DNA of 64,000 nt from Shewanella donghaensis. GTDB lineage: Bacteria > Pseudomonadota > Gammaproteobacteria > Enterobacterales > Shewanellaceae. The position numbers and the translations under genes are program-made. This document shows, one piece after another, positions 37,482 through 40,956 of the stretch. The notes under the pieces are model-generated. The model was not told where the DNA came from, searched no databases, and saw nothing but the letters and a program-made list of their open reading frames with translations. Positions within the stretch are counted from its first letter, which is position 1, and the number at the start of each line of letters is the position of its first letter. The stretch is from positions 2,976,001 through 3,040,000 of the forward strand of contig NZ_CP041783.1 of NCBI RefSeq assembly GCF_007567505.1, read 5' to 3'.

Positions 37482-38324
37482 ATGTTAAGTTACCGCCACG
37501 GTTATCATGCCGGCAATTATGCCGATGTACTTAAGCACACTATGTTGCTGCAAGTGCTTAAACTCATGCACAAAAAAGATAAGCCTATGGCCTATATTGA
37601 TAGTCATGCGGGTGCTGGCGGTTATTCGCTAACTGATGAGTTTTCAAAGAAAACCGGCGAATACTTAGATGGCGTAGCCAAGCTTTGGGGTAAAGATGAT
37701 TTACCAGAATCATTGCAGCTGTATATTGAAGACGTAAAACACTTCAACCAAGGTGAGGAAGAATTGTCTTTTTACCCTGGTTCTCCTGCTTTTGTTGATA
37801 TGAACATGCGTGAAAAAGATCGCATGGTATTACATGAATTACACGGTACTGACTTTGCTTCACTTGATGAGCAGTTTGCTGATGACAGACATGTTCGTGT
37901 CGTTAAAGGTGATGGCTTGAAAGGCTTAATTGGTGCAGTACCACCACTTGAACGCCGCGCTGTAGCTTTGATTGATCCAAGTTACGAAATGAAGACCGAT
38001 TACCAAGATGTTGCCCATGCCATCATCAAGGCGCATAAACGTTTTTCTACTGGTGTTTATATGCTTTGGTATCCAGTGGTTGATAGAGCCCAAACCGAAG
38101 CGATGTTGAAAATATTGGCTGATAGCGGTATTAAAAATCAACTGAGAATTGAGCAGTCAATCACGCCTGATAATAATGTCTTTGGTATGACTGCAGCAGG
38201 TTTATGGGTGATTAACCCGCCATGGAAGTTAGATACTACTGCGAAAGAGACATTAGATTACCTAGAGCGCTGTCTTGGTCAAAGCGGCGGAAAAACAGTG
38301 GTTAAGTTAGAAGTACCTGAATAA
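37482..38324 (+). CDS. rlmJ: 23S rRNA (adenine2030-N6)-methyltransferase RlmJ
   Basis: A 280-residue methyltransferase. The N-terminus MLSYRHGYHAGNYADVLKH and DSHAGAGGYSL are diagnostic for RlmJ (YhiR), and LIDPSYEMKTDY is the DPPY-like catalytic motif of N6-adenine methylases. It modifies A2030 of 23S rRNA. A terminator follows at 38373-38403. The gene is divergent from rsmJ with a shared ~140-base promoter region. Confidence 0.96.
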   Translation: MLSYRHGYHAGNYADVLKHTMLLQVLKLMHKKDKPMAYIDSHAGAGGYSLTDEFSKKTGEYLDGVAKLWGKDDLPESLQLYIEDVKHFNQGEEELSFYPGSPAFVDMNMREKDRMVLHELHGTDFASLDEQFADDRHVRVVKGDGLKGLIGAVPPLERRAVALIDPSYEMKTDYQDVAHAIIKAHKRFSTGVYMLWYPVVDRAQTEAMLKILADSGIKNQLRIEQSITPDNNVFGMTAAGLWVINPPWKLDTTAKETLDYLERCLGQSGGKTVVKLEVPE

Positions 38325-38372: not shown

Positions 38373-38402
38373 AAGCCCGTGTAATGCAAATTACATGGGC
38401 TT
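38373..38402 (+). terminator. Terminator of rlmJ
   Basis: AAGCCCGTGTAAT pairs with ATTACATGGGCTT (one G:T) across GCAA, with A-tracts on both sides. It can also serve the minus-strand lipoprotein gene. Confidence 0.75.
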
Positions 38403-38482: not shown

Positions 38483-38764
38483 TCATGTTTCAAAATACTG
38501 ACGCTGAACACATTCATCATCATCGTTAAGTTTGCGATCAAGCGAACCAAATATCGCACTAAAAAAACCTTCCTTTACATCGTCGCGAGTTGACCCAACT
38601 GACGAAGTATTTTCAGGACGAGACTCTGCAATTTCCCTTTCTTTAGCATTACCGTGTGCACCCGTGACAAAGTCACAAGCCGCATTGGCTGCGGTTTGAG
38701 ATGAACATGCGCTCATTAATACTATTGGTACCAATAAGCTTGTTAATAATATCCATTTATTCAT
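38483..38764 (-). CDS. Small lipoprotein, paralogue of 39136-39396
   Basis: About 93 residues from the ATG at 38764 with AAGGAT upstream. The signal peptide ends in a lipobox LMSACSS. The sequence pattern CSS...A.NA.CDFV.G followed by an acidic C-terminus containing DDECV is shared with the lipoprotein at 39136, so the two arose by duplication. Two further Cys (in CDFV and DEC) may form a disulfide. Family function is unknown. The copy has diverged more in the middle part. Confidence 0.75.
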   Translation of the reverse strand: MNKWILLTSLLVPIVLMSACSSQTAANAACDFVTGAHGNAKEREIAESRPENTSSVGSTRDDVKEGFFSAIFGSLDRKLNDDDECVQRQYFET

Positions 38765-38796
38765 ATTAATCCTTATTTTCACACTTTGTAAATTTT

Positions 38797-39117
38797 CTTA
38801 AAAGAACGTACCCAGAAATACCACAGAACTTGCATTAACGCTGTCACCACCACTGGCAACGCCGAAGGCATTATTATCTATGACCATACATTTTAGTATA
38901 AATTCATTCGCATTACCGACGTAACGGCTATGACTCCATTCAGATGCAGTCGTTGAGCGCCAATAGACCGATAACCTGATATGTTCTTACTCGGTTGAGG
39001 CAGACATTGAAGCTTGGTATCTTGCTGCATAATGCCACCGATTTTCAATCCTTTAGTCGGTTCAGGAGTCCACTCCATTGAAGCCAAACTAATTACACGG
39101 GCTTTTTTTTTAAACAA
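38797..39117 (-). pseudogene. Remnant 3' copy of the M28 peptidase gene
   Basis: Minus-strand reading of this stretch gives VISLASMEWTPEPTKGLKIGGIM, which matches the C-terminal domain of the M28 peptidase at 39426. After GYR the frame is lost: the stretch around 38970 has one fewer C than its counterpart at 39607, and the rest of the peptidase C-terminus is only found in another frame. The alignable block is 38797-39100 against 39434-39735. It has no start of its own and is an obvious decayed duplicate. Confidence 0.8.
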
Positions 39118-39135
39118 TTACTGATGCGATATAAG

Positions 39136-39396
39136 CTATATGCATTCATCACCGTTGTCGTTGAAAGGTCGTACTACTAGTCCGATTAGGGCGGTAAAAA
39201 TACCAACAATAATATCACCATCATGTGAATCGCTGGTAGTTGCTCCCGGGCCTGAGTCACGTTCGCGTCTATCTGAATTACTTTCTGCCGTGCCGCGAAC
39301 AAAATCACAGCCTGCATTGGTGGCGCTTGATGATGAGCAAGCCGTGTTCAATAACATTGGCAGTAATAAACTTGCCAGTAAAATCCTTTTCTTCAT
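39136..39396 (-). CDS. Small lipoprotein next to M28 peptidase
   Basis: An 86-residue protein starting after AAGGAG at an ATG at 39396. The signal peptide ends at the lipobox LLNTACSS. After it the pattern CSSSSATNAGCDFVRG is followed by a polar, Gly/Ser/Asp-rich middle, a hydrophobic stretch (IIVGIFTALIGLVV) and a terminal GDECI. The same pattern appears in the paralogue at 38483. It starts 30 bases after the M28 stop codon and is likely co-transcribed with it. Function unknown. Confidence 0.75.
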   Translation of the reverse strand: MKKRILLASLLLPMLLNTACSSSSATNAGCDFVRGTAESNSDRRERDSGPGATTSDSHDGDIIVGIFTALIGLVVRPFNDNGDECI

Positions 39397-39425
39397 CCTA
39401 CTCCTTATTTTTACATCATATAAAT

Positions 39426-40835
39426 CTATTTAAAAAATGCACCAGCCGCTCCTGGGAATACCACAGGACTGGTATTACCGTTGTCGCCCACACTGGCAAC
39501 GCCATAGACATAATTATCTATGACCATGTTTTTCATAATAAATTCATTCACATTACCCACGTAACGACTATGACTCCATTCTGATTCAGTCGTTGAGCGC
39601 CAATAAACCCGATAACCTAATATGTTCTTGTTTGGTTGCGGCTGCCATTGAAGCTTGGTGTCGGGCTGCATAATGCCTTCGATTTTCAACCCTTTTGGTG
39701 GTTCAGGCGCCCACGCCATTGAAGCCAAACTAATGGCATTTAATGCTGTGAGTTTGGCATTAAAATCAAAATCAACACCCTCAATCACATCACCATATTC
39801 AATACCATTTTCAGTGCGAATATCTTGATGCTGACGATCATAATGCTCATTAGCTTCCATCACTCTGACTGCTGGCATGCCTGCTTTATTAAAGGGTAGA
39901 TGATGTCCGCCACGGCCAAAACGATCTAAACGATAAACCAACATGACATCAAGATTGGTCATGTATTGATCCACTAAGGTTTTAATTTTTCGTGCAAGGT
40001 TACGTGAAGCAGAATCATTTTCGCCGCCGCTAAAATAGCGCTCTTTGGCCTCTTCTTTAGTTTCTGCAATTCTTACACCTTCAGAAAAGACTCGAACAGT
40101 AGAATTGTTGATAACACCATTAATCCCAGCAATATTACCAATCATGTCATTATTCAACACCGCTTGGACTTGCCAGTTATGCTTTTTAGCGTAATTAATT
40201 AGCACATCACCGCCATATAGACCTTGCTCTTCACCTGATAGGGCTACGTAAACAATGGTGCCATTGAACTGATATTTCGACAGCACTCGCGCGGCTTCCA
40301 GTGCGCCGGCTACCCCTGATGCATTATCATTTGCCCCTGGTGACACTGAAGTAAAATCCATTGGATCGGTTACTCGAGAATCAATATCACCACTCATCAT
40401 CACCACACGATTAGGATCTGTTGTGCCTCGTTGAATCGCAAATACGTTAACCACTTCAGTAGGATCTGGGATGCGCTTGCCACTGACCTTCTCCCCCACC
40501 ATAACCACTTCTAAACAGCCGCCGCAATCAGCTGATATGCGTTCGAATTCAGTTTTAATCCATCGCCTTGCTGCGCCAATACCTTGGGTATCAGATTGTG
40601 TTTCAGATAAAGTATGACGAGTGCCAAAGCTCACTAATTTCTCCACATCGCTACGTAACCTGTCGGCCTTTGGGGCTGTGGCAATATCATATAAACGCAT
40701 ATCTTCTTCTGACGGCGCCATATGACTTTTCTGCGCCGCAATCGCATTGAAACCGATTAAGTTAACGCTTAATACCGACAGTACTCCAATGAACTGATAG
40801 CATTTTTTTATCATTTTTTGTTTATTGCTGTTCAT
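39426..40835 (-). CDS. Secreted M28-family metallopeptidase with C-terminal fibronectin-like domain
   Basis: About 469 residues from the ATG at 40835 (GAGG upstream). A signal peptide ends near AIAA. The M28 core has SGDIDSR, SPGANDNASGVAG, LSGEEQGLYGG, NNDMIGN and the late FGRGGHHLPF, giving Asp, Asp, Glu, Asp and His ligand places. The first position, usually His in GHxDS, is Asp here (GDIDS). After about residue 370 a beta-rich tail (PKGLKIEGI...YRVYWRSTTESEW) resembles a fibronectin type III domain. Likely an exported aminopeptidase. The 3' third has a degenerate second copy downstream. Confidence 0.88.
   Translation of the reverse strand: MNSNKQKMIKKCYQFIGVLSVLSVNLIGFNAIAAQKSHMAPSEEDMRLYDIATAPKADRLRSDVEKLVSFGTRHTLSETQSDTQGIGAARRWIKTEFERISADCGGCLEVVMVGEKVSGKRIPDPTEVVNVFAIQRGTTDPNRVVMMSGDIDSRVTDPMDFTSVSPGANDNASGVAGALEAARVLSKYQFNGTIVYVALSGEEQGLYGGDVLINYAKKHNWQVQAVLNNDMIGNIAGINGVINNSTVRVFSEGVRIAETKEEAKERYFSGGENDSASRNLARKIKTLVDQYMTNLDVMLVYRLDRFGRGGHHLPFNKAGMPAVRVMEANEHYDRQHQDIRTENGIEYGDVIEGVDFDFNAKLTALNAISLASMAWAPEPPKGLKIEGIMQPDTKLQWQPQPNKNILGYRVYWRSTTESEWSHSRYVGNVNEFIMKNMVIDNYVYGVASVGDNGNTSPVVFPGAAGAFFK
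39434..39735 (-). repeat. Source block of the duplicated M28 3' end
   Basis: This block aligns with 38797-39100 at an offset of about 640 bases with a net one-base deletion in the remnant. Conserved anchors include ATACCACAG near 39460/38820 and CCATTGAAGCCAAACTAAT at 39717-39735 and 39076-39094. Confidence 0.85.
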
Positions 40836-40956
40836 ATCATCCTCTTGTTTAGGTGCTTTATTTAAGTACAATATTTAAGTGCGATATTTAAGAGTTAGTC
40901 GCGCCCTCAAATATTATTTTTGTTCTCTGAGTTTATTTGAATTTATTTAACTAGCA

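What the first reader, a model, noticed from the sequence alone, without database searches (positions are those of the whole stretch)
38483..39735. Tandem duplication caught in decay: M28 3' end plus lipoprotein
The order lipoprotein, frameshifted M28 fragment, lipoprotein, intact M28 shows a roughly 640-bp unit duplicated after the peptidase. The lipoprotein copy remains open while the peptidase fragment has lost frame, so selection kept the lipoprotein. This suggests lipoprotein dosage or divergence matters.
Basis: seen in the sequence. Interest (0 to 1): 0.5.

Follow-up and report, generated by a model that had tools for sequence, protein, structure and literature searches.

The report
Chimeric duplication holding two lipoprotein alleles
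In a marine Shewanella, the end of a peptidase gene and the small lipoprotein gene after it are doubled, but the two lipoprotein genes were already different before they became neighbours, so this looks like a recombination accident that put a second version beside the first rather than one gene copied and selected for dose.

Summary
The repeat is real. On the minus strand the order is intact M28 peptidase, lip2, half a terminator, frameshifted M28 tail fragment, lip1, full terminator. The junction joins the loop of a terminator hairpin to the M28 tail across 3 shared bases (ATT). The nearest relative with an unbroken contig has one copy, and 1 of 63 genus genomes with the M28 tail shows this unit. 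The interpretation needs correcting. Identity between the copies falls from 87% (first part of the tail) to 75%, 72%, 68% and 52% (mature lipoprotein). Third-position differences are 28/101 in the tail against 54/85 in the lipoproteins (p about 2e-6). A tree puts lip2 with the nearest relatives' single gene and lip1 with other species' alleles; grouping lip1 with lip2 is rejected (AU p = 0.0007). So the lipoproteins diverged before they met. Best reading: recombination with a divergent strain, one end homologous and one end illegitimate, added a new tail end plus lip2 and pushed the old copy with lip1 downstream. The same layout is known for displaced effector and orphan immunity genes in Vibrio cholerae. 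Selection on lip1 is possible but not shown. The one-step and two-step routes were not separated. Modest interest.

The parts
39426..40871 (-). Intact M28-family aminopeptidase gene; longest frame starts at TTG 40871, an ATG lies 36 nt inside it
   Evidence: Pfam PF04389 E 1.6e-22 and fn3-like C-terminus; PDB relatives are bacterial leucyl aminopeptidases, E 4.5e-13
39429..39734 (-). Copy 2 of the M28 tail (part of the intact gene); first part (to about 39551) pairs with copy 1, the rest has other ancestry
   Evidence: Site patterns and identity
39136..39396 (-). lip2, small lipoprotein, counterpart of the single gene in the nearest relatives
   Evidence: 92% identical to the gene in strain 10N.286.48.A6 and 92% to that of UCD-KL21
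39091..39104 (-). Half terminator: first arm only, fused to the M28 tail; ATT (39091-39093) shared by both parents
   Evidence: no strong hairpin left, -4.0 kcal/mol against -13.9 for the full site on the lip1 strand
38799..39093 (-). Copy 1 of the M28 tail: decaying fragment with no start, a 1-base gap near 38969 and an 8-base gap near its end
38483..38764 (-). lip1, second small lipoprotein of another allelic lineage; open frame, lipobox Cys20
   Evidence: Starred clade with TC10 and holmiensis lipoproteins; conserved residues kept
38373..38402 (.). Full terminator hairpin between lip1 and the convergent rlmJ; its loop is the second breakpoint
   Evidence: Folded with ViennaRNA, alignment, breakpoint; the consensus terminator scan did not list it
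37482..38324 (+). rlmJ-like gene, convergent neighbour (name recalled, no family search run on it)
   Evidence: Conserved neighbour in relatives

Best explanation
The unit is a chimeric tandem repeat that carries two pre-existing alleles of a fast-evolving Shewanella lipoprotein gene. Most likely in one step: DNA from a related strain paired with the M28 tail near 39550 by ordinary homologous recombination, bringing a new tail end, lip2 and one arm of the terminator. Its other end was joined illegitimately, at ATT, to the start of the resident tail. The resident tail, now without its gene, and the resident lipoprotein lip1 were displaced downstream. The tail fragment then decayed while lip1 stayed open. 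Because the terminator after lip2 lost one arm, transcripts from M28-lip2 can probably run on into lip1. Shown: the repeat, junction, chimeric ancestry, decay of the fragment, loss of the hairpin. Inferred: the single step, the direction of transfer, read-through, and any function of lip1.
For: Stepwise loss of identity 87/75/72/68/52% along the unit. Third positions 28/101 against 54/85, p 1.6e-6. lip1+lip2 clade rejected. Sites grouping copy 1 with copy 2 (10 sites) all lie at 39705-39561; those grouping copy 2 with strain 10N and copy 1 with KL21 lie at 39536-39420, except one at 39619 (Fisher p 1.2e-4, split chosen after seeing the data). lip2 synonymous divergence is about half that of the flanking genes in all three pairs (W-N 0.32 against 0.70 core and 0.58 rlmJ; uncorrected p 0.009, 0.004, 0.029 against core), which fits recent spread of this allele. 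Lipoprotein swaps elsewhere: TC10 and holmiensis are 80% alike in the lipoprotein but 76.5% in M28 core, 70% in tail and 73% in rlmJ. Microhomology at the joint. Published precedents by passages: V. cholerae displaced effectors with retained immunity genes, explained by homology-facilitated illegitimate recombination (PMC5361080); E. coli transfer experiments in which 56 of 60 clones carried partial duplications, explained there by a single crossover with a shortened circle, not by true HFIR (PMC3240628).
Against: The direction of exchange in the distal tail could not be rooted: outgroup states are mixed at the informative sites. In the distal tail itself W-N synonymous divergence is 0.58 on only 25 sites, not clearly lower than in the core. 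The halved arm (CGTG) pairs with the resident second arm (CACG) better than the resident first arm (CATG) does, which fits a donor of the same lineage or a two-step history better than a 10N-like donor. No donor or resident allele close to lip1 was found (best 57-60% identity). All E. coli duplications quoted above were assigned to another route than HFIR.
Confidence: 0.5

Rival explanations
1. Two steps: a plain tandem duplication in this lineage, joined at ATT in the terminator loop, followed later by ordinary recombination that replaced the distal tail and lipoprotein in one of the copies.
For: First part of both tails shares 10 sites against both relatives; the terminator arms of the two copies match as if from one original; lipoprotein swaps without displacement are seen elsewhere.
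Against: Needs two events in the same 640 bp; nothing here requires the second.
Confidence: 0.32
2. One reading: one unit duplicated, then the lipoproteins diverged (relaxed or diversifying selection).
For: Related lipoproteins at matching places (45% identity); fast-evolving family.
Against: Saturated synonymous differences between lip1 and lip2 beside a tail only 18% different; clade rejected; lip1 looks like alleles of other species.
Confidence: 0.08
3. Old duplication before the split from 10N and KL21, with the extra copy lost in them.
For: lip1-lip2 divergence is older than the split; KL21's contigs break inside lip2 with an identical overlap of about 163 bases, so a second copy there is not excluded.
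Against: First part of the tail: copies 1 and 2 share 10 sites against 10N and KL21, so the repeat arose after the split.
Confidence: 0.07
4. Assembly error or chance similarity.
For: None.
Against: Single-contig genome; copies are 13-48% different along their length and share a precise junction.
Confidence: 0.01

Closest known systems
Displaced effector genes with retained orphan immunity genes, Vibrio cholerae T6SS clusters (PMC5361080, abstract and passages read)
   Same: Layout: intact gene, its small partner, 3' end of the displaced gene, older partner; proposed cause is recombination anchored at one end and illegitimate at the other
   Different: There the swapped genes are toxins with cognate immunity. 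Here the gene is a conserved secreted-type aminopeptidase, the lipoprotein is often absent beside it, and no toxicity or immunity is indicated
Homology-facilitated illegitimate recombination and related partial duplications in transfer experiments (PMC3240628, abstract start and passages read)
   Same: One homologous and one illegitimate joint; partial duplications of 109-950 bp were common products
   Different: Laboratory plasmids; those duplications were assigned to single crossover of a shortened circle
Small tandem duplications with microhomology joints in bacteria (PMC11111574, passages read)
   Same: Tandem unit with a few shared bases at the joint
   Different: There the copies are identical and selected for copy number

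Membership tests
Simple tandem duplication of one unit | Copies at matching places and orientation, with one junction | tested here: met
Simple tandem duplication of one unit | All parts of the unit share one age | tested here: not met
   Tail 28/101 against lipoprotein 54/85 third positions; lip1+lip2 clade rejected
Homology-facilitated illegitimate recombination product | Illegitimate joint with little homology | tested here: met
   3-base overlap ATT
Homology-facilitated illegitimate recombination product | Donor ancestry starts at a homologous joint | tested here: inconclusive
   Pattern switch near 39550, direction not rooted
Effector with orphan immunity array | Old 3' end and old partner downstream of new pair | tested here: met
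   which pair is the older was not rooted
Effector with orphan immunity array | Partner always present beside the gene it protects from | tested here: not met
   Of 30 M28 loci examined (of 63 genomes matched), 17 have rlmJ adjacent and 11 of those 17 a lipoprotein; 12 lack rlmJ and lipoprotein, one of them (L121) near a contig end; 1 ends in the contig
Effector with orphan immunity array | Toxicity and protection | not testable with these tools
   Needs a bench test
M28 aminopeptidase | Peptidase_M28 domain above curated cut-off | tested here: met
   80.6 bits, cut-off 21.3
Lipoprotein | Signal peptide with invariant lipobox cysteine | tested here: met
   C20 invariant in 23 of 23 sequences chosen for the alignment; no Pfam family above cut-off

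The most novel reading that the evidence does not exclude
The M28-lipoprotein pair behaves like a swap locus: the peptidase tail and a hypervariable cognate lipoprotein (guard or inhibitor) are replaced together, and old lipoproteins are kept downstream because they still protect against, or tune, other strains' peptidases, as orphan immunity genes do.
Probability: 0.05. Interest if true: 0.6.

Novelty: new member of a known kind. Interest (0 to 1): 0.25.

Why it matters
It shows how a tandem repeat that looks like duplication and divergence can be two older alleles brought together, so that Ka/Ks between the copies would mislead. It also adds a non-toxin-looking example of the displaced-copy layout known from effector and immunity loci. 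The wider lesson is local; nothing here overturns known mechanisms.

Tried and rejected
Plain duplication with divergence: rejected on the ages of the parts. Old duplication with losses: disfavoured by shared sites in the first tail part. Integration by a single crossover of a circularised donor piece, as in PMC3240628: considered; it predicts donor ancestry in the first part of copy 1, which instead groups with copy 2, so it needs a mosaic donor. Site-specific element at the M28 3' end (suggested by tandem 3'-end repeats in other species): looked at; the window's breakpoints differ from those arrays and I searched for no integrase, so I dropped it. Family searches gave no name for the lipoprotein. 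A fold prediction of lip1 gave a low-confidence helical model (mean pLDDT 68.5, pTM 0.48) and I did not search with it. A promoter scan found about as many sites as shuffles (11 against 8.3 +/- 2.8) and the terminator scan found none. Literature: one search for Shewanella with M28, tandem duplication and lipoprotein found no paper; searches were used for mechanisms, listings only apart from the passages cited.

Full report
What is there. The window lies in a single-contig Shewanella genome (G000; genus from the named relatives). Read on the minus strand: an M28 aminopeptidase (39426-40871), a small lipoprotein lip2 (39136-39396), a 14-base arm of a terminator (39091-39104), a fragment of the M28 3' end (about 38799-39093), a second small lipoprotein lip1 (38483-38764), and a full terminator hairpin (38373-38402) before the convergent rlmJ-like gene. 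Repeats of 126-153 bp at 84-85% identity are far beyond chance.

Junction. The sequence after lip2 follows the terminator up to the loop (AAGCCC.TGTAATT) and then continues as M28 from ATTAGTTTGGC. ATT is common to both. The unit therefore runs from inside M28 to the tip of the terminator hairpin. The halved arm no longer folds strongly (-4.0 kcal/mol for the stretch, against -13.9 for the full site on the lip1 strand and -23.6 for the 10N site), so read-through from lip2 towards lip1 is plausible, but this is an inference.

Distribution. The M28 tail was found in 63 of 129 genus genomes. Only the window's genome shows this unit. The nearest relative with an unbroken contig, strain 10N.286.48.A6 (L032/L105), has one tail and one lipoprotein (92% identical to lip2). 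In UCD-KL21 the M28 contig and the rlmJ contig both end in the lipoprotein with an identical overlap of about 163 bases, so one copy is simplest but two are not excluded. Of the 30 M28 loci fetched (of 63), 17 have rlmJ adjacent and 11 of these 17 hold a recognisable lipoprotein; 12 lack rlmJ nearby (one, L121, close to a contig end), and 1 ends in the contig. Five further loci have the lipoprotein beside rlmJ and no M28 match (L144, L146-L149).

Ages of the parts. Copy 1 and copy 2 are 86.8% identical in the first tail part (39551-39733), 75.2% in the rest of the tail, 72.4% in the gap before the lipoprotein, 68.3% in the signal peptide and 52.3% in the mature lipoprotein. Third codon positions differ at 28 of 101 in the tail and 54 of 85 in the lipoprotein (Fisher p 1.6e-6). 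lip1-lip2 synonymous differences are pS 0.77, dN 0.46. If both had been born in one duplication, the lipoprotein should not be so much older at silent sites than the tail. Changes found only in copy 1 fall on all codon positions (2/6/4 in the first part, 6/10/3 in the rest, the latter including sites beyond the gene end), as expected of a neutral remnant.

Trees. The fragment falls with the window's tail, 10N and KL21 (100/98) and lip2 with 10N (97/97), while lip1 falls with TC10, holmiensis and G093 (87/93). With 28 lipoproteins lip1 is in starred groups with TC10 and holmiensis (98/84) and G093 (97/93), and a clade of lip1, lip2, 10N and KL21 is rejected (AU p 0.00075; 0.023 with 17 sequences). 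Several rows in these trees are long.

Mosaic tail. Among copy 1, copy 2, 10N and KL21, 10 sites between 39705 and 39561 join copy 1 with copy 2, and none after. Nine sites (ten) join copy 1 with KL21 and copy 2 with 10N, all but one between 39536 and 39420; three sites in each call join copy 1 with 10N (Fisher p 1.2e-4 on 10/1 and 0/8; the split point was chosen after seeing the sites). Outgroups do not root these sites, so which copy was changed is open. lip2 is closer at silent sites among window, 10N and KL21 (dS 0.32, 0.35, 0.22) than the M28 core (0.70, 0.78, 0.43) or rlmJ (0.58, 0.83, 0.53), and TC10 and holmiensis are more alike in the lipoprotein (80% nt) than in M28 or rlmJ. The lipoprotein thus appears to move between lineages.

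Explanation. A single event explains most of this: incoming DNA recombined by homology in the tail near 39550 and its far end was joined at ATT to the start of the resident tail, leaving new tail end and lip2 on the intact gene and the old tail and lip1 downstream. A duplication followed by replacement of one copy explains the same facts and fits the terminator arms slightly better. I put these at 0.5 and 0.32. The published model for Vibrio cholerae effector loci is the closest in layout (PMC5361080, passages). PMC3240628 (passages) shows that partial duplications are common by-products of such transfers, though by another route.

Function. M28 is related to secreted leucyl aminopeptidases (that these are secreted is recalled). 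The lipoprotein family has an invariant lipobox cysteine and nearly invariant D31, F32, V33, G35, G66, G73, R77, all kept in lip1. It has no named family above cut-off and no solved relative. A neutral frame of this length would stay open with start and lipobox cysteine with probability 0.02-0.52 across the rates tried (0.04-0.37 for 0.08-0.10 substitutions per site), so selection on lip1 is suggested at most. The idea that the lipoprotein guards against the peptidase is not supported by its frequent absence beside M28.

Verdict.

Noticed in passing
L134 1673-2196 (G082), L135 1678-2072 (G010), L136 1678-2403 (G121, UCD-KL12): The M28 3' end is tandemly repeated after the stop codon in three other genomes: 157 bp x 3.3, 135 bp x 2.9, 156 bp x 4.7. 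G082 and G121 arrays look related, G010's differs, so the gene's end has been duplicated repeatedly.
   Followed up: partly
L137 1517-2252 (G072): M28 pseudogene with a large internal deletion that joins two similar short stretches and a frameshift.
   Followed up: no
L009, L010, L011, L012, L013, L014, L020-L022: Relatives of the lipoprotein lie at other places, for example directly after an aminotransferase-like gene (L010, L011, L013, L014; the label is recalled, not searched).
   Followed up: partly
L129 1501-1785 (G093): M28 tail much more divergent than its core suggests (66% against 85% protein identity to the window), so tails may be swapped elsewhere.
   Followed up: partly
L033/L106 and L154 (UCD-KL21): Two contigs end inside the same lipoprotein gene with an identical overlap; assembly break or a second copy.
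   Followed up: partly
window 39426-40871: Outside Shewanella the M28 protein's nearest matches are roughly 59-67% identical in marine Alphaproteobacteria and Lysobacter and 52-61% in Flavobacteriia and other Bacteroidota, hinting at old transfer.
   Followed up: no
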